Source: an uncultured Saprospiraceae bacterium (GTDB lineage: Bacteria; Bacteroidota; Bacteroidia; Chitinophagales; Saprospiraceae). Taken from it: a stretch of DNA of 64,000 nt. The stretch is taken from contig CALFBH010000075.1 in NCBI GenBank assembly GCA_937951615.1, positions 1-64,000 of the forward strand, read 5' to 3'. A program made the translations under genes and the position numbers. Under the pieces are notes generated by a model. The model had not been told where the DNA came from. It saw only the letters and a list, made by a program, of their open reading frames with translations, and did no database searches. Shown here piece after piece: positions 3,424 to 62,503 of this stretch. The stretch's first letter is position 1, and every line of letters starts with the position of its first letter.

Positions 3424-3467
3424 AGTGTGTTGAATTTGTATTTGACATTTGATTTTGAATTTAAAGC
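3424..3467 (+). repeat. TTTGAATTT-like repeat leader before the 3468 start
   Basis: Short T/A-rich repeats (TTGAATTTG, TTTGACATTTG, TTTTGAATTT) fill the gap up to the ATG. They resemble the cleaner GAATTTGAATTT repeat before the gene at 7252. This is low-complexity sequence, so repeat character alone is weak evidence. Confidence 0.4.
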
Positions 3468-4288: not shown

Positions 4289-4975
4289 ATGTACAACGCA
4301 AAACAAATGTGGAACAAAGCCTATCGCGAAAAACGCGACATGGCATATCCCTCGGAATACGTCATCCGAATTTTAAAAGGAAAATATCCAAGGCTCAATC
4401 TCGACAAAGCCAATTTCAAAGGCAAAAAATTCTGCGACATGGGCTGCGGTGACGGGCGCAACGTCGCGCTAGCCAAAGAATGTGGCTTCCTGCCGCACGG
4501 CGTAGAAATTACAGATGACATCGTTGCCAAAATTCAGGAAAACCTGAAAAATATTGGTATTACAGATGCCGACATTCGAGCAGGAATGAACAACAACATT
4601 CCATTCGACGAAGCCTATTTCGACTACCTGATGTCCTGGAACGCCTGCTACTATATGGGCGAGGAAACAGACTTCAACAACTACGTCAAAGAATTTGCAA
4701 GAGTCTTGAAGTCGGAAGGTTATCTACTCTTGTCCATTCCCAAGAAAACCTGTTTCATCTTCGATAGCAGCGAGCAGGATCGCCCTGGTTATAATGTTAT
4801 TCGAGACGACTATTTTGGCTATCGCAACGGAGAAATTCTACGCATATTTGAAGACGAACAAGAAATCGAAGACACCTTTTCACCCTATTTCAAAAACTTC
4901 ATCCACGCCTCTATCCACGACGACTGCTTTGGCTTGGCCTACCACTGGCATCTAACTGTTTGCCAAAGAAAATAA
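4289..4975 (+). CDS. Class I SAM-dependent methyltransferase
   Basis: A 228-residue protein with motif I FCDMGCGDGRN, an acidic motif II at VEITD and the motif IV region YFDYLMSWNACYY, typical of small-molecule class I methyltransferases (methyltransferase types 11/25). I place the start at the ATG at 4289: the open frame extends to 4124, but those 55 codons translate a CCAAT-type repeat and do not look like protein. It probably methylates either the acyl precursor handled by the neighbouring ligase, VOC and cyclase genes, or a sugar; sequence does not decide. All genes from 1943 to 8688 are on the same strand, separated by repetitive leaders instead of the usual tight operon overlaps. Confidence 0.8.
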   Translation: MYNAKQMWNKAYREKRDMAYPSEYVIRILKGKYPRLNLDKANFKGKKFCDMGCGDGRNVALAKECGFLPHGVEITDDIVAKIQENLKNIGITDADIRAGMNNNIPFDEAYFDYLMSWNACYYMGEETDFNNYVKEFARVLKSEGYLLLSIPKKTCFIFDSSEQDRPGYNVIRDDYFGYRNGEILRIFEDEQEIEDTFSPYFKNFIHASIHDDCFGLAYHWHLTVCQRK

Positions 4976-4985
4976 TTTTGAAAAT

Positions 4986-5068
4986 GTGTTGGTGTGTTGA
5001 TGTGCGCATGTGTTGATGTGATTTTGTTGATGTAGCGATAATTCATGAATTATCGCTACATCAACAAA
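4986..5068 (+). repeat. G/T-rich 8-nt array plus perfect 46-bp palindrome
   Basis: Directly after the preceding stop codon, 4986-5020 reads as 8-nt units GTGTTGGT, GTGTTGAT, GTGCGCAT, GTGTTGAT. Then 5023-5068 is a perfect palindrome with 23-bp arms (left arm starts TTTGTTGATGTAGCG, centre TTCATGAA). The G/T units are nearly complementary to the C/A units that follow: GTGTTGGTGTGTTG matches the complement of two CGACAACA units at 12 of 14 positions. The RNA could therefore fold as a strong hairpin, as a longer G/T:C/A duplex, or both. Confidence 0.8.
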
Positions 5069-5070
5069 CA

Positions 5071-5174
5071 CGACAACACGACAACACGACAACACGACAA
5101 CACGACAACACGACAACACGACAACACGACAACACGACAACACGACAACACGACAACACGACAACACGACAACA
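5071..5174 (+). repeat. (CGACAACA)x13 tandem array before the 5182 start
   Basis: Thirteen perfect copies of the 8-nt unit CGACAACA, followed by CAATAAA and the ATG at 5182. There is no Shine-Dalgarno sequence. The same unit occurs 8 times before 8821, in a degenerate form before 18993, and on the minus strand before 62217. Perfect identity of the units suggests recent expansion by slippage. Confidence 0.95.
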
Positions 5175-5181
5175 CAATAAA

Positions 5182-5844
5182 ATGGAAATCATAGACATCA
5201 CCTACACCCTAGAAGAAGGCATGACCACTTTTGCTGCGCCCTGGCATTTCGGATTTGAAATACACCAATTGGGGAGACATGGACACGAAGGACGTGCCAG
5301 CCGAAAAATTGCCTTTGGCTCGCACACAGGCACACACATGGACGCGCCTTTGCACTTCATCGAAAACGGACAATCCATTGACGAAATTCCAATGGACATC
5401 ATGCTCGGACCAGTGACGATATACGACCTAAGCCATCTCAAAGACGGAGCAGCCGTAACACTCGACATGCTCGACAAACCCGTTACCGAGCGCATTATTT
5501 TCAAATATGGTTGGGGCAAACACTGGTACAGCAAAAAATTCTATACAGGCTATCCGTACCTGAGTGAAGAAGTGGCACATCACCTCGTCGAAAAAGGCGT
5601 AAAAATCATCGGCATGGACAGCCCCTCACCAGATGACAGCCTAATAAAACTGGATGCAGCAACAAGAGGCACAGCTGAAGACTCCCCCATCCACAAAATT
5701 TTGCTCGGCAATGGCGTCATCATGGTAGAATACATTGCCAACTTAGATCAACTAAAAGATACAGAAGGCTGGAACTGGACAGTCATGCCGATAAAAGTGA
5801 AAGGCTGTGACGGAGCGCCAGTAAGGTCTTGTTTGCACAGATAA
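5182..5844 (+). CDS. Cyclase-family (kynurenine formamidase-like) metal-dependent hydrolase
   Basis: A 220-residue protein with the signature GSHTGTHMDAPLHF at residues 46-59, in which His48, His52, Asp54 and His58 are the expected metal ligands. The later GMDSPSPDD is also typical. Members of the cyclase family (PF04199) hydrolyse or cyclise amides and esters, e.g. kynurenine formamidase, or form cyclic polyketides. Here it sits between a methyltransferase and an acyl-carrier/acyltransferase fusion, so a role in tailoring or trimming an acyl group is plausible, not shown. The start follows the CGACAACA array; no alternative in-frame start lies nearby. Length is normal for the family. Confidence 0.85.
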   Translation: MEIIDITYTLEEGMTTFAAPWHFGFEIHQLGRHGHEGRASRKIAFGSHTGTHMDAPLHFIENGQSIDEIPMDIMLGPVTIYDLSHLKDGAAVTLDMLDKPVTERIIFKYGWGKHWYSKKFYTGYPYLSEEVAHHLVEKGVKIIGMDSPSPDDSLIKLDAATRGTAEDSPIHKILLGNGVIMVEYIANLDQLKDTEGWNWTVMPIKVKGCDGAPVRSCLHR

Positions 5845-5902
5845 AACAAAAAACTTAGTGACCCTTCTCCACGATAGCTGTCGGGATTAGTGGCGTCAAA
5901 AA

Positions 5903-5977
5903 ACGCCTCGATGCGCAATCCAGTAAAACGCCTCGATGCGCAATCCAGTAAAACACCCCGATGCGCCACCCAGTAAA
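5903..5977 (+). repeat. Three tandem copies of a 25-bp unit
   Basis: Two identical 25-bp copies (5903-5927, 5928-5952; core CGCCTCGATGCGCAATCC) and a third variant (5953-5977; core CCCCGATGCGCCACCC). A 21-bp string spanning the third copy (5950-5970) recurs exactly at 14232-14252, so the third variant is also dispersed in the window. Confidence 0.9.
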
Positions 5978-5979
5978 AC

Positions 5980-6168
5980 AACCCGCAACCCGCAACCCGA
6001 AAACCCGCAACCCGCAACCCGCAACCCGAAAACCCGAAAACCCGAAAACCCGCAACCCGCAACCCGCAACCCGCAACCCGAAAACCCGAAAACCCGAAAA
6101 CCCGCAACCCGCAACCCGCAACCCGCAACCCGAAAACCCGCAACTCGCAACCCACAACTCAACAACAA
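5980..6168 (+). repeat. CCCGCAA / CCCGAAAA two-unit array before the 6169 start
   Basis: About 23 units separated by CCC, of two kinds: GCAA (A) and GAAAA (B). The order is AAB AAA BBB AAAA BBB AAAA B AA, so a higher-order block BBB-AAAA is repeated. The array ends in ACAACTCAACAACAA just before the ATG. G occurs only as one base per unit, and the array has no ATG. All reading frames on the minus strand stay open through it, which creates spurious long frames. Confidence 0.95.
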
Positions 6169-7212: not shown

Positions 7213-7251
7213 ATTGAATTTGAATTTGGCGTTTGAATTTGAATTTAAACC
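7213..7251 (+). repeat. GAATTTGAATTT direct repeats before the 7252 start
   Basis: Two copies of TGAATTTGAATTT-like sequence separated by GGCGTT, then AAACC and the ATG. This A/T-type leader contrasts with the C/A-type leaders of its neighbours, but has the same position and internal repetition. Confidence 0.55.
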
Positions 7252-8688
7252 ATGCTTTTCAATTCCATAGAATTTTTCCTGTTTCTGCCATTGGTGTTCT
7301 GCCTATATTGGTTTGTCACCAATCGGAATTTGCGCCTGCAAAACCTGCTGATTCTAGCATCAAGTTATGTCTTTTACGGTGCTTGGGACTGGCGATTTTT
7401 ATTGCTGATATTTTTTAGTTCAGCGGCTGATTTTACCATAGGCTGGTTGATGGGCAGCACGCCCGAACATCAAAAACGACGACGAAAATTATTACTCTGG
7501 CTGAGCTTGGCACTCAATCTCGGCATACTTGGCTTTTTTAAGTATTACAACTTCTTTACCGATGCGCTGATAGACCTGCTACAAGGCTTTGGGCTTCACG
7601 CCAATTATCGGACATTATACATCATTTTGCCAGTAGGCATCAGTTTTTATACCTTTCAAACCCTTAGTTATACCATAGATATATACCGAGGGAAACTCAA
7701 GCCCAGTAAAGATCCAATAGCCTTTTTTGCCTTTGTTAGTTTCTTTCCCCAACTCGTGGCAGGCCCTATTGAACGTGCCTCGAATCTATTGCCTCAATTT
7801 GAGAAAAAAAGAAGCTTTGACTTCGACCAAGCCAGAGATGGAGCAAGACAAATGCTCTGGGGCTTCTTCAAAAAAATTGTCATAGCCGATAATTGCGGTA
7901 TTTTGGTCGATACTGTATTCGCAGATATTGGAGGAAGTAGTGGGAGCATGATTTTGCTGGCATTATGCTATTTTTCGTTTCAAATTTATTGCGACTTCAG
8001 TGGTTATTCAGACATTGCAATTGGCTGCGCCAAGCTGTTTGGTATCGGGCTGATGGACAATTTCAAATATCCATATTTTGCGAGGAATATAGGAGAGTTT
8101 TGGCGACGCTGGCATATTTCCTTATCGACTTGGTTTCGGGATTATCTGTACATTCCATTAGGCGGAAGCCGAGTCAGTCAGAAACGAGCTATTTTTAATG
8201 TCATGGCAATATTTCTGGTCAGTGGTTTCTGGCATGGCGCGAATTGGACATTTATTTTATGGGGATTTTTGCACGGCTTATTTTTTATACCGCTATTGCT
8301 AATGGGACAAAATCGCAGCTACTTAGATGTTGCAGCAAACGACCGCATCTTACCCAGTATCAAAGAGTTATTTCTAATCGGACTGACATTTTTAATGACG
8401 ACGCTTGCCTGGATACCATTTCGGGCAGAAAGCCTGAGTCATGTCGGAGAAATCATAAATGGCTTGATGTCTTCATCCTTGCTGTCCATTCCACCCATGA
8501 TGAAAATGATTCCATACATTGCCGTTTTTGTGTTGATAGAATGGTGGGGACGCAGAAAACGCTATCCATTAGAAAACCTAGAATTTGCCAAGCCTGTTCG
8601 CTGGGGTATTTATCTGACTTTATTTGCAGCTATTTTCCTACTGGGCGATTTCTCGCAAAAAGGCGAATTTATTTATTTTCAGTTTTGA
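7252..8688 (+). CDS. MBOAT-family O-acyltransferase (AlgI/DltB-like), copy 1
   Basis: A 478-residue polytopic membrane protein of the membrane-bound O-acyltransferase family. Signature regions are SFYTFQTLSYTIDIYR at 131-146, EFWRRWHISLSTWFRDY at 282-298 with His288, and SGFWHGANWTF at 324-334, whose His328 is the expected catalytic residue. AlgI and PatA-like members move acetyl or other acyl groups across the membrane to extracellular polysaccharide. The next gene encodes an SGNH-like protein, the usual partner that finishes the transfer outside the cell. A second copy lies at 10961; both end in FIYFQF. The donor is unknown, but the upstream ligase and carrier domain make a non-acetyl acyl group possible. 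Confidence 0.92.
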   Translation: MLFNSIEFFLFLPLVFCLYWFVTNRNLRLQNLLILASSYVFYGAWDWRFLLLIFFSSAADFTIGWLMGSTPEHQKRRRKLLLWLSLALNLGILGFFKYYNFFTDALIDLLQGFGLHANYRTLYIILPVGISFYTFQTLSYTIDIYRGKLKPSKDPIAFFAFVSFFPQLVAGPIERASNLLPQFEKKRSFDFDQARDGARQMLWGFFKKIVIADNCGILVDTVFADIGGSSGSMILLALCYFSFQIYCDFSGYSDIAIGCAKLFGIGLMDNFKYPYFARNIGEFWRRWHISLSTWFRDYLYIPLGGSRVSQKRAIFNVMAIFLVSGFWHGANWTFILWGFLHGLFFIPLLLMGQNRSYLDVAANDRILPSIKELFLIGLTFLMTTLAWIPFRAESLSHVGEIINGLMSSSLLSIPPMMKMIPYIAVFVLIEWWGRRKRYPLENLEFAKPVRWGIYLTLFAAIFLLGDFSQKGEFIYFQF

Positions 8689-8690
8689 AT

Positions 8691-8811
8691 GTGTTGAAGT
8701 GTTGATGTGCGCATGTGTTGAAGTAGATTTTTTTGCGAAGCAAAACACGACAACACGACAACACGACAACACGACAACACGACAACACGACAACACGACA
8801 ACACGACAACA
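8691..8811 (+). repeat. Second composite leader: G/T 8-nt array plus (CGACAACA)x8
   Basis: Starting 2 bases after the preceding stop, 8691-8722 reads GTGTTGAA, GTGTTGAT, GTGCGCAT, GTGTTGAA, nearly the same four units as at 4986. A short hairpin TTTTGC-GAA-GCAAAA follows. Then come eight perfect CGACAACA units (8748-8811) and a 9-base spacer to the TTG at 8821. The conserved order with a replaced middle hairpin suggests one element type in two places. Confidence 0.92.
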
Positions 8812-8820
8812 CATTTTCAT

Positions 8821-12975: not shown

Positions 12976-13019
12976 ATTCATCGTTCATCATTTATAGTTC
13001 ATCATTCAATAAAAATAAC
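12976..13019 (+). repeat. TTCATC repeat leader before the 13020 start
   Basis: The words TTCATCGTTCATCATTTATAG and TTCATCATTC form an imperfect tandem repeat of GTTCATCATT that ends in AATAAAAATAAC before the ATG. The first part recurs in inverted orientation just after the lspA stop near 54962-54985. Confidence 0.55.
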
Positions 13020-13277: not shown

Positions 13278-14170
13278 TAAAATTTCTCACAAGGCTGTTA
13301 CTGTTCTTTTTTATCTGTTTTCTGATACCAGAAATTGGGCTGCGCTTTGTCGTACCCAAAATCAGTCATCACCAAAACATAGAAAAAGCTGTCCGTTTAT
13401 TGCCGCAAGTTGATGAAAATACCATTCTATTTGTAGGCGATAGCCGTGTAGAATGGGGAATCAAACCTTCCACCATAGAGCAAGAAACAGGACAGCCCAC
13501 CCTCAATCTCGCCATGCCTGGCAGCAATGGACTGGATGTGATGACTTATTTGAAAAAGAACAAAGTCTATCCGAAAAAAATCATTGTAGGAGTAAATTAT
13601 TTTAGCCCGACCTGGCGAAATTTTAAAAAAACTGAAAAGCTGAACACAAGCTGGTGGAATAGACTATCGCTTAGCGCGAATTATTTGCTCAAGCAGCATT
13701 CTTATTTGTATGAAAAAAAATCGCTAGAGCAATACGCCGAAGGCGAGCAGCCCTTTTTTCTGCACCACAACTATGATAAAAAAGGTAGTGTTACAGTAAA
13801 AGAAAGAGGCAATTACGAAGAAAGAAAAGCCTTCCAACTCACTTGGTTCAAAAGCCGGGCTGAGAAAATGAACATAGACTCAATAGCCAATATTTATAGT
13901 AATAAAATGGCTAAAGAGGTCAGCCATTTTCAACAAAAAGGAACAGACGTAATTGGCTTAGTGATGCCTATATGCAATGACTTACACAAAATAGAAGGCT
14001 TTGAAAAAGTAGATTCACTAGCACATACAATTCCATTCAATCGGATAGACAATTATATGGATACGCACCGAATGAAGTTAAATGAAACAGCATTTCAAGA
14101 TTGCTCGCACCTGACCCCCGCAGCAGCAGAAATTTTTTCAAAAACAATAGCCAATGAGTTGGTCAAATAA
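13274..14170 (+). CDS. SGNH-like membrane-anchored protein, second copy
   Basis: A 298-residue protein with an N-terminal membrane anchor (residues 5-25) and an extracytoplasmic SGNH-type domain. Block I is LFVGDSRVEWG at about 52-62, where Ser57 is the candidate nucleophile, and the C-terminal DCSHLTPAAAE carries the Asp-x-x-His pair. These motifs are more canonical than in the protein at 8821. It likely acts with the MBOAT at 10961 in O-acylating an exported glycan (inference from gene order and family). The start is GTG at 13274, overlapping the previous stop by 4 bases; this fits the anchor position. Confidence 0.72.
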   Translation: MIKFLTRLLLFFFICFLIPEIGLRFVVPKISHHQNIEKAVRLLPQVDENTILFVGDSRVEWGIKPSTIEQETGQPTLNLAMPGSNGLDVMTYLKKNKVYPKKIIVGVNYFSPTWRNFKKTEKLNTSWWNRLSLSANYLLKQHSYLYEKKSLEQYAEGEQPFFLHHNYDKKGSVTVKERGNYEERKAFQLTWFKSRAEKMNIDSIANIYSNKMAKEVSHFQQKGTDVIGLVMPICNDLHKIEGFEKVDSLAHTIPFNRIDNYMDTHRMKLNETAFQDCSHLTPAAAEIFSKTIANELVK

Positions 14171-14231
14171 AACCCTTAGGAGGTAAAAAACACCCCAACC
14201 TCCGTGACCCTCCGTACCTTAGTGGTTTAAA

Positions 14232-14297
14232 AAAACACCCCGATGCGCCACCTAACTTTCATCCCAAAAAACGACAACACCTCAGCACAACAACACA
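14232..14297. repeat. Dispersed 21-bp string and CAACAC words between convergent genes
   Basis: 14232-14252 is an exact 21-bp copy of 5950-5970 (core CCCCGATGCGCCACC). It is followed by ACGACAACACC and ACAACAACACATCAAAG, words of the CGACAACA array family, ending at the stop codon of the minus-strand gene. Here the C/A words lie on the plus strand at the 3' end of a minus-strand gene, so they do not serve as a leader for it. Just before, GGAGGT...ACCTCC forms a 6-bp stem near 14178-14203. Confidence 0.65.
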
Positions 14298-15575
14298 TCA
14301 AAGTTCTTTCAGCAAGCCATGCTCCAAAAGAACCTTCACCGACTCCAAAATCTCCCCAGAAGGCTGCCCGCTACGCCGGACAATATCTATCAAGTCATGT
14401 TTGCCATCAGCCAGATTGAGTGTCCACATCATAGCCGCCACGCGCAGCCGAGTCGAAGTATCTGAACCCAGATTAGGATACAAACCCCGCTTCCCCAACT
14501 GAGGTTCACAATGCGGCATCTGATTCACATAATAAGCATTGGCTTCTATCAGGCGTACAATATCGACCAGTCGGGCAACAGCGGTTTCCATCGCCTCAAA
14601 AGAAATAAAATCCTTATTATCTGCAGAAGTATGATACTCTGGATAAATAAAATAACGAGTCCGCATAACAGACCCCACAGGCAAATCAAAACCAGGCGAA
14701 CAATACTGTCGCTCATCGCTCCCCAATGGGAAAAAATCTTCAGCGCGACAACCAATTTCCGTTTGATGAAGGACAGTCTCAGCAGCTCGGTCAGCCAGCG
14801 AATTACTTTGCCGACTTCGCTTATACGTAAACTGACCCGCATCACCAATACAGTTCAATACATAACCCGCTTTAAGGTGTTTTTTCAAATGTTCGCCCTG
14901 TTGAGAAAGATAATAAATCGGACCAATCGTCTCCGGCGCAAACAAAAAACGGTAAGTATAACGGGTTTGCCCCAATGCTTTGATCGCACGATACAAAAAA
15001 GCCTGCACCAGTGGCCCACTCAACTCATTATTCGCCATAGAAGGATGACAGATATAAGTAGAAAAGAAAATTTCATCCGTTGTTTCACCAGGAATAATAG
15101 CATCTGCCAGCGTCATCGAACCAGCAGTATCCAAAGTCGAATCAATACAAACCTCATATTCGCCCGGTTGTAAACTTTCCAACTGCCGATGCGTCAGACA
15201 AAAGCCCCAGCGTTCCTTATAATAGGAAGTTCGATAAGGAATCCAGTCGGGCTGGTCGGGCAAAGAATAGAGATGCTTTTTCAAATCCTCCAAAGACATT
15301 GTTTCCCTTACGGGAATAGAATAGCCAAGCAAGTGAAGGTTATTATGTTTAAAATCAATAATTTTTTCTCCGGTCGGCGATTTGATCCAGGCTTCACGCA
15401 CATTCCACTCTGGCGGTACAGTCCAGTCGAAGCAGGTCGTCCCACTTGGAATTTCATGAATTTTTAAACCCACCAATTCCGATAAAATCTGAAGCGACTC
15501 CCGATTTCCATCGCCTGTCAGACTGCGTGTAATTGGCCAGAGGCGGTCGAAATATTGTTCGAGTTCTTTTTGCAT
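14298..15575 (-). CDS. DUF4910/DUF2172 aminopeptidase-like protein
   Basis: A 425-residue protein of the family with an M28-peptidase-like core, an inserted DUF2172 beta domain and a C-terminal winged helix. The opening DRLWPITRSLTGDGNRESL is characteristic, as are ICHPSMANNELSGP (likely metal ligands His and Glu) in the middle and EYHTSADNKDF near the C-terminus. Members are frequent in surface-glycan gene clusters across bacteria, but their substrate is not established; some annotations treat them as peptidases. The C-terminal 60 residues (RRSGQPSGEILESVKVLLE) fit the winged helix. It is the only minus-strand gene in the first 46 kb, which suggests separate acquisition or regulation. Confidence 0.8.
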   Translation of the reverse strand: MQKELEQYFDRLWPITRSLTGDGNRESLQILSELVGLKIHEIPSGTTCFDWTVPPEWNVREAWIKSPTGEKIIDFKHNNLHLLGYSIPVRETMSLEDLKKHLYSLPDQPDWIPYRTSYYKERWGFCLTHRQLESLQPGEYEVCIDSTLDTAGSMTLADAIIPGETTDEIFFSTYICHPSMANNELSGPLVQAFLYRAIKALGQTRYTYRFLFAPETIGPIYYLSQQGEHLKKHLKAGYVLNCIGDAGQFTYKRSRQSNSLADRAAETVLHQTEIGCRAEDFFPLGSDERQYCSPGFDLPVGSVMRTRYFIYPEYHTSADNKDFISFEAMETAVARLVDIVRLIEANAYYVNQMPHCEPQLGKRGLYPNLGSDTSTRLRVAAMMWTLNLADGKHDLIDIVRRSGQPSGEILESVKVLLEHGLLKEL

Positions 15576-18896: not shown

Positions 18897-18992
18897 ATGA
18901 GTTGCGAGTTGACGAGTTGCGAGTTATTGTATTTTCCGACAACACCAACACGACAACACGACAACACATCAACAGGACAACACATCAACAAC
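18897..18992 (+). repeat. GAGTTG array followed by degenerate CGACAACA array before 18993
   Basis: Immediately after the stop codon: GAGTTGC, GAGTTGAC, GAGTTGC, GAGTTATT (G/T-rich, 7-8 nt spacing). Then from 18938: CGACAACA, CCAACA, CGACAACA, CGACAACA, CATCAACA, GGACAACA, CATCAACA and ACATG. The order (G/T array after stop, C/A array before start) is the same as at 4986-5182. The C/A units vary at two positions, consistent with an older array. Confidence 0.85.
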
Positions 18993-28785: not shown

Positions 28786-28866
28786 ATTGAGTTATTGAGC
28801 TGATGAAGTAAAATCAACTCAATCAACCCAATAACTCAATCACCCAATACACTCAATCAACCAACA
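28786..28866 (+). repeat. Hairpin plus CAATCAACC/CAATAACTC leader before 28867
   Basis: One base after the preceding stop, ATTGAGTTATTG (28786-28797) pairs perfectly with CAATAACTCAAT (28829-28840). The second arm is embedded in a G-free tandem of CAACTCAAT, CAACCCAAT, AACTCAATCACCCAATACACTCAAT, written here in pieces, that runs to the TTG at 28867. The layout (G/T arm after stop, C/A array before start) is that of 4986-5182, with different words. Confidence 0.75.
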
Positions 28867-62225: not shown

Positions 62226-62289
62226 GTGTTGTCGTGTTGTGGTGTTGATGTGTTGTTGTACTTTGCTGAATAAGACATCAACACCACAA
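62226..62289 (-). repeat. Minus-strand hairpin plus degenerate CGACAACA array before 62217
   Basis: In gene orientation, a 15-bp perfect inverted repeat (arms 62275-62289 and 62237-62251; stem TTGTGGTGTTGATGT) is followed by 8-nt units CAACAACA, CATCAACA, CCACAACA, CGACAACA and then AAAAACAG and the ATG. The last hairpin arm is itself part of the C/A array. It shows that the leader element is oriented with its gene and not with the chromosome. Confidence 0.85.
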
Positions 62290-62503
62290 GCTGACTGTAT
62301 ATGTTTTTTCTTCTTTTTAGGTGGAAACGAAAATACGGTAGTGTTCGACTAAAGTATGATTGAGTAAACTCCGTTGTCGTCAGACGAATTCGCTTAGAAA
62401 TACGGCATATCTAAAGGGATAAATTACCAATTTTCATAAAATCCTTCGTCTGCCGACTATTCCATACTTTAATCGAACACCCTTGAAAATACCCTCCCGT
62501 ACA

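What the first reader, a model, noticed from the sequence alone, without database searches (positions are those of the whole stretch)
4986..5181. Complementary 8-nt arrays: GTGTTGNN after the stop, CGACAACA before the next start
Four 8-nt G/T units follow the stop of the methyltransferase gene, then a perfect 46-bp palindrome, then 13 C/A units abutting the cyclase gene. Both arrays have the same period and are nearly complementary (12 of 14 bases over two units). In RNA the G/T array can invade any register of the C/A array, so copy-number change would shift the fold continuously. This resembles a switchable or tunable leader hairpin.
Basis: seen in the sequence. Interest (0 to 1): 0.7.

Follow-up and report, generated by a model that had tools for sequence, protein, structure and literature searches.

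The report
Dispersed stop-to-start hairpin with repeat arms
The two complementary 8-letter repeat arrays are one copy of a DNA element found at dozens of places in this Saprospiraceae genome, filling the gap between one gene's stop and the next gene's start; it probably gives the mRNA a hairpin and then an unfolded landing strip for ribosomes, and is unlikely to be a switch tuned by repeat number.

Summary
In detail: G/T array 4984-5020, perfect 46-bp palindrome 5023-5068, (AACACGAC)x13.6 at 5067-5175, cyclase ATG 5182.

It is not a single leader but one of 45 copies in its genome of one design: stop codon, [GTGTTGNN]3-5, central GTTTTGC-GAA-GCAAAAC hairpin (enlarged to the palindrome in about seven copies), (CAACACGA)n, start codon. 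The broader CAACACNN repeat occurs in all six genomes of the genus and almost nowhere else in the family. The C/A array ends a median 5 nt before an ATG; the right flank codes on the array strand in 40 of 40 scorable cases. Recognisable downstream genes are housekeeping (murG, fur).

In congeners the same slot may be short or hold an unrelated hairpin; at one locus both arms changed together (GTGTTG/CAACAC versus GTGTTA/TAACAC).

Folding does not support the tunable-hairpin idea: the G/T arm uses the first 4-5 C/A units, MFE is constant for n>=5, start accessibility saturates at n>=7, and natural copies show no correlation with unit number.

Best reading: a rapidly turning-over intercistronic stem-loop plus unstructured SD-less leader, REP-like in placement, not a switch. 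Function is inferred; a selfish or tolerated repeat remains a serious rival.

The parts
4289..4975 (+). upstream cistron: class I SAM methyltransferase; TAA stop at 4973-4975
   Evidence: Pfam Methyltransf_25/_11 above cut-off; orthologous pair with the cyclase in G001, G003 and G005
4984..5020 (+). 5' G/T arm, GTGTTGNN units with the family motif GTGCGCATGTGTTGATGT
   Evidence: TRF and repeat finder; same motif in many of the 45 copies
5023..5068 (.). central palindrome (46 bp); core ATGTAGCGATAATTCATGAATTATCGCTACAT shared with about six other copies, most copies having GTTTTGC-NNN-GCAAAAC instead
5067..5175 (+). 3' C/A array (AACACGAC)13.6: the first 4-5 units are predicted to pair with the G/T arm, the rest form an unstructured leader
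5176..5181 (+). AATAAA immediately before the start codon (A at -3, no Shine-Dalgarno sequence seen)
   Evidence: sequence; A at -3 is a positive determinant in Bacteroidetes (PMC6847099)
5182..5844 (+). downstream cistron: putative cyclase, arylformamidase-like below the equivalog cut-off
   Evidence: Pfam PF04199; TIGR03035 76.7 bits against a cut-off of 223
8681..8820 (+). second copy of the same element in the window (G/T arm, TTTTTTGCGAAGCAAAA hairpin, (AACACGAC)8.6), between the MBOAT gene and the next gene

Best explanation
The feature is one copy of a genus-restricted, dispersed intercistronic element. In a read-through transcript the G/U-rich 5' arm, which starts at the stop codon of the upstream gene, zips onto the first four or five C/A units around a central hairpin. 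This gives a long interrupted stem (6-bp helices separated by 2x2 internal loops). The remaining C/A units and the A-rich spacer stay single-stranded and deliver an SD-less ribosome to the downstream start. The stem separates or stabilises the upstream 3' end and the C/A array acts as an unstructured leader. Extra units arise by slippage and act as spacer, not as a tuner. Shown: the dispersed family, the exact stop-to-start fit, the sense orientation, the hexamer-plus-spacer pattern and unit turnover at orthologous slots. Predicted only: the fold. Inferred: transcription across it, slippage as the source of extra units, mRNA insulation or stabilisation, and the leader role.
For: 45 copies, nearly all of one design. 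C/A array ends a median 5 nt before ATG, 38 of 44 within 30 nt; G/T arm a median 4 nt after a co-directional stop, 27 of 33 within 20 nt. Right flank codes on the array strand 40:0, left flank 32:1. Within arrays the spacer position 7 differs in 69% of imperfect units against 5-17% for hexamer positions 2-6. Fold z -6.7. Hairpins (z<-3) in 31% of co-directional and 51% of convergent gaps, but 11% of divergent gaps and 1% of coding controls. The orthologous methyltransferase-cyclase gap is a hairpin in four species with three unrelated sequences, z -5.9 (own), -4.1 (G001), -8.1 (G003), -7.2 (G005). Arm-matched unit switch at the C42A slot. Post-stop and pre-start segments complement their own partner more than expected (6% of loci in the best 1%). 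In Bacteroidetes initiation relies on an unstructured, A-rich start region (PMC6847099).
Against: No transcript or protein data. The element is absent at the orthologous hemB-fur gap (22 bp in G001, z +0.9) and other slots, so it is dispensable there. Arms can expand independently: in G002 C318 the arms carry GTTGAATT and CAACACGA, complementary only over GTTG/CAAC. Predicted start accessibility is lower with the stem (0.61) than with the array alone (0.80). Spacer dinucleotides do not match between arms, as read from the sequences. The G/T-left polarity also holds in convergent gaps (20:2), so it is not explained by a nearby start codon.
Confidence: 0.5

Rival explanations
1. Selfish or neutral repeat: a REP- or MITE-like hairpin that spreads by DNA-level copying and then grows by replication slippage. 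It survives only in intercistronic gaps because insertion in genes is harmful, and has no benefit of its own.
For: Copies share long near-identical cores. Lineage-specific presence and absence and rapid replacement by unrelated hairpins. Perfect arrays of up to 16 units suggest recent slippage. An IS200-like transposase sits inside a gap with GTGTTG/CAACAC outer flanks in G005.
Against: The 40:0 sense orientation of the expanded arm and the conservation of the hexamer over the spacer are not expected of neutral slippage. No target duplication was recognised at hemB-fur. No Y1 transposase of the own genome was found beside an array within about 1.5 kb.
Confidence: 0.3
2. Copy-number-tuned or phase-variable leader: slippage of the C/A array shifts the fold and sets expression of the cyclase.
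For: A perfect 13.6-copy array is a plausible slippage hotspot. The arms do pair in alternative registers in silico. 5'-UTR repeat number is known to set expression in Moraxella uspA2, as cited in PMC4679880.
Against: Fold and start accessibility are flat from 5-7 units upward. No correlation over 40 natural copies. The same element precedes housekeeping genes. Only copy numbers below about five would change the fold.
Confidence: 0.07
3. Transcription terminator or attenuator between cistrons.
For: Hairpins abut stop codons and are most frequent in convergent gaps.
Against: No U-tract follows the central hairpin on either strand, and no terminator-like site is found in the gap 4976-5181. The AACACGAC unit lacks YC dinucleotides, unlike a classical Rho site (my own knowledge of rut sites). 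Most copies sit between co-directional genes with no recognisable promoter after the stem.
Confidence: 0.08
4. Binding array for a protein that reads CAACAC (or GTGTTG) every 8 nt with a free 2-nt spacer, in the manner of TRAP or another multimeric RNA-binding protein, or a DNA-binding protein.
For: Hexamer conserved, spacer free. Constant 8-nt period over many loci.
Against: Congeners use other units in the same slots (TAACAC, GGACTAT, ACTATCA), which a sequence-specific reader would not allow. No candidate protein was looked for or identified.
Confidence: 0.05

Closest known systems
TAACTGA heptamer direct repeats of Beggiatoaceae, Cyanobacteria and Bacteroidetes (MacGregor 2015, PMC4679880)
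   Same: Short-unit intergenic tandem arrays, in the best-studied genome mostly sense-oriented within several nt of a start codon, no functional bias of downstream genes, longer arrays in some Bacteroidetes
   Different: 8-nt unit with a free dinucleotide instead of a fixed 7-nt unit. Here a complementary array and a central hairpin form a stop-to-start stem; TAACTGA repeats in up to six copies are not predicted to fold. Much narrower distribution
REP / GTAG- and CGTC-tagged palindromes (PMC3733652) and REPIN/RAYT systems (PMC3116915)
   Same: Dispersed intergenic palindromes, mostly between unidirectional or convergent genes, abutting 3' ends of genes; proposed mRNA-level roles
   Different: Arms here are tandem arrays, the element abuts the downstream start as well, the GTAG of the palindrome is paired, and no RAYT is linked in the own genome
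SD-less translation initiation regions of Bacteroidetes (PMC6847099)
   Same: Low-structure, A-rich region with A at -3 before the start codon
   Different: The passages read describe no tandem arrays or stop-to-start stems; the C/A array as leader is inferred here

Membership tests
REP (GTAG/CGTC-tagged) elements | Unpaired GTAG or CGTC tag at one end of a short stem-loop | tested here: not met
   The GTAG occurs only inside the perfect palindrome of a minority of copies and is base-paired
REP (GTAG/CGTC-tagged) elements | High-copy, intergenic, adjacent to 3' ends of genes | tested here: met
   45 copies of the GA class; G/T arm a median 4 nt after a stop
REPIN/RAYT system | Y1 (RAYT) transposase gene flanked by the same element | tested here: not met
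   Four Y1_Tnp matches in the own genome, none with arrays within about 1.5 kb. One IS200-like gene in G005 does lie inside a GTGTTG/CAACAC gap
TAACTGA-type start-codon-proximal repeats | TAACTGA heptamer unit | tested here: not met
   Unit is CAACACNN with period 8
TAACTGA-type start-codon-proximal repeats | Sense-oriented array within a few nt of a start codon | tested here: met
   Median 5 nt, 40:0 orientation
Intrinsic terminator | GC-rich hairpin followed by a U-tract | tested here: not met
   No hit in 4976-5181; the central hairpins are followed by ACACGAC
Known structured RNA or riboswitch | Rfam match at gathering score | tested here: not met
   No match anywhere in the window
Phase-variable (contingency) locus | Copy number varies within a population and changes expression | not testable with these tools
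   One assembly only; indirect evidence from folding and natural copies is against a tuning effect

The most novel reading that the evidence does not exclude
A sequence-independent, architecture-selected intercistronic module: this genus maintains stop-to-start stems plus C/A leaders in its operons whose sequence is freely replaceable (different 7-8-nt units per species and locus, the two arms co-evolving by concerted unit change), as a general means of separating cistrons in bacteria that lack Shine-Dalgarno sequences.
Probability: 0.2. Interest if true: 0.75.

Novelty: new variant of a known kind. Interest (0 to 1): 0.45.

Why it matters
Bacteria of this phylum do not use Shine-Dalgarno sequences, so how each gene inside an operon gets its own ribosomes is unclear. 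A high-copy element that fits exactly between stop and start codons, always has its C/A arm on the sense strand, and is replaced by unrelated hairpins in sister species is a natural experiment on what an intercistronic region needs. It is also a warning that a striking local 'switch' can be one copy of a genome-wide repeat.

Tried and rejected
Rfam search: nothing. RAYT mobilisation in the own genome: transposase genes exist but not beside the arrays. Target-site duplication at the one clean presence/absence site (hemB-fur): none recognised. Terminator and promoter scans: no terminator in the gap, and only 2 of 44 elements carry a Bacteroidota -7-like TAnnTTTG. Rho site: considered and set aside because the unit lacks YC dinucleotides. 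Tuning by copy number: not supported. Integron attC was considered from memory because of the GTTG/CAAC arms and dropped, since the copies are dispersed and not in a cassette array. Literature search for intergenic repeats in Saprospiraceae: no paper.

Full report
OBSERVATION. The described layout is exact: methyltransferase stop at 4975, G/T array 4984-5020, perfect 46-bp palindrome 5023-5068, (AACACGAC)13.6 at 5067-5175 without a mismatch, AATAAA, cyclase ATG at 5182. The gap folds at -61.4 kcal/mol against -39.1 +/- 3.3 for dinucleotide shuffles (z -6.7).

IT IS A FAMILY. The 16-mer CAACACGACAACACGA occurs 267 times in the 6.96-Mb own genome and the reversed control never. A pattern that gives one row per array (DAACACGACAACACGAC) finds 45 arrays. 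Read side by side, nearly all have the same parts in the same order: upstream stop; a G/T arm of GTGTTGNN units, often with GTGCGCATGTGTTGATGT; a central hairpin GTTTTGC-GAA/GGA/TTC-GCAAAAC; (CAACACGA)n with n from 2 to 16; a few nt; start codon. About seven copies, this one included, have the larger palindrome ATGTAGCGATAATTCATGAATTATCGCTACAT in or in place of the loop. A second copy stands in the window at 8681-8812.

TAXON. The looser pattern CAACACNNCAACACNNCAACAC has 746 hits in the own genome, occurs in all five congeners (6 to 256 hits) and in almost no other genome of the family. Two congeners match public records by contig number together with contig length or array position (G005 = CALIZI01, contig 58, 56,100 bp; G002 = CALCMV01, contig 313). 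Both are titled uncultured Saprospiraceae bacterium, so the window is placed in that family (Bacteroidota). The own record itself is unnamed.

PLACEMENT. With a simple codon-model gene caller on 851 kb of own sequence and on the 45 loci, the end of the C/A array lies a median 5 nt before the first in-frame ATG (38 of 44 within 30 nt), and the G/T arm starts a median 4 nt after a co-directional stop (27 of 33 within 20 nt). In an orientation test that uses only coding potential of the flanks, the right flank codes on the array strand in 40 cases and on the other strand in none; the left flank is 32 to 1. Downstream genes are diverse and often housekeeping: murG and fur (murG from its first 30 residues) and, from N-terminal sequences read by eye only, likely lpxB, hemB, rlmN, kbl and mqnA. 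The genome as a whole is rich in hairpins after stop codons: 31% of co-directional and 51% of convergent gaps have z < -3, against 11% of divergent gaps and 1% of coding controls.

INSIDE THE ARRAYS. In units flanking perfect GA runs, position 7 differs from the seed in 69% of imperfect units, positions 2-6 in 5-17%. So the unit is a conserved hexamer CAACAC with a free dinucleotide. In the stem this gives 6-bp helices separated by 2x2 internal loops. The dinucleotides do not match between arms (read from the sequences).

CONGENERS. At the orthologous methyltransferase-cyclase gap, G003 and G005 hold a different hairpin (AACCACGAAG...CTTAGTGGTT) and G001 a third one (GGGCGTAT...ACGCCC); all four fold significantly (own z -5.9, G001 -4.1, G003 -8.1, G005 -7.2). 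At hemB-fur the own element is 143 bp, while G001 has 22 bp and G003 55 bp without a hairpin. At the C42A gap G001 has the same design with another unit, GTGTTA on the left and TAACAC on the right, where the own genome has GTGTTG and CAACAC: both arms changed together. At C42B several congeners have arrays of other units (ACTATCA, GGACTAT), again with complementary arms. More widely, the 55 nt after a stop complement their own pre-start 55 nt better than those of other loci (6% of loci in the best 1%; the same without the CAACAC family). A counter-example is G002 C318, whose arms carry different units, complementary over 4 of 8 bases.

In silico, with n = 0 to 20 units, the MFE stops changing at n = 5 (-67.4), the expected number of G/T-C/A pairs stops at 27.5, and start-region accessibility is constant from n = 7 (0.56). 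Most pairing is with units 1-5, with a minority register at the distal end. Across 40 natural copies with 3-16 units, unit number and start accessibility are unrelated (rho 0.06). So copy number is predicted to change leader length, not the fold.

MECHANISM (inferred). In a read-through mRNA the stem separates the cistrons and may protect or process the upstream 3' end. The free C/A units plus AATAAA form an unstructured SD-less initiation region, in line with the determinants found in Flavobacterium johnsoniae (PMC6847099). The strongest support is orientation, stop-to-start fit, hexamer conservation and arm-matched unit change. The strongest objection is that the element is absent from orthologous gaps, so a tolerated selfish repeat cannot be excluded. 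No expression data exist here.

COMPARISON. MacGregor 2015 (PMC4679880) described start-codon-proximal TAACTGA heptamer arrays, without a complementary partner array or predicted structure. REP elements (PMC3733652) share dispersal and 3'-end placement but carry an unpaired GTAG/CGTC tag and lie at varying distances from the downstream gene. The present element fails the defining features of both and combines the placement of one with the stem of the other. No paper on intergenic repeats in Saprospiraceae was found.

CAVEATS. Gene starts are from a simple caller. Array lengths in a draft assembly are minimal, and several arrays lie at contig ends (e.g. C126, C134). Congener comparisons cover about 20 gaps, not the genome. 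The hairpin statistics are from samples of up to 120 gaps per class.

Noticed in passing
window 5979-6158: Second kind of array, CAACCCG heptamers (24.6 copies) before the ACP/AAC3-like gene, preceded by three 25-nt repeats (5900-5979). BLAST finds relatives of it at many own-genome loci (C3, C10, C19, C41, C91). The same gap is 5 bp in G001 and a nested hairpin in G005.
   Followed up: partly
window 3430-3462 and 7214-7246: Recurrent, roughly 33-nt, 6-nt-period elements of the TTGAAT / TTAAAC / TTTGAA type in intergenic regions over the whole sampled genome (51 intergenic period-6 arrays in 851 kb); nature unknown.
   Followed up: no
window 18899-18990, 28812-28864, 62226-62290, 12976-13008: Further intergenic arrays of 7-9-nt units, several with a G/T left arm and C/A right arm. 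Across the sampled genome the G/T-left polarity of gap hairpins holds in co-directional (62:5), convergent (20:2) and divergent (10:0) gaps and has no explanation yet.
   Followed up: partly
L264 (G005:C28:1-20000) about 13700-14620: In congener G005 the MBOAT-SGNH gap carries an IS200-like Y1 transposase gene inside a long inverted repeat whose outer flanks are GTGTTG/CAACAC arrays.
   Followed up: partly
window 4973-4980: TAATTTTG overlapping the methyltransferase stop fits the Bacteroidota -7 consensus TAnnTTTG. If used, transcription would start near the beginning of the G/T array and still include most of both arrays. Background is 0.13 per 200 nt.
   Followed up: partly
L124 (G000:C7:166000-176000), arrays at C7:171768 and C7:171938: A tandem duplication of about 170 bp contains the element and the first codons of a gene (MKKIS...), leaving two near-identical element copies in a row.
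   Followed up: no
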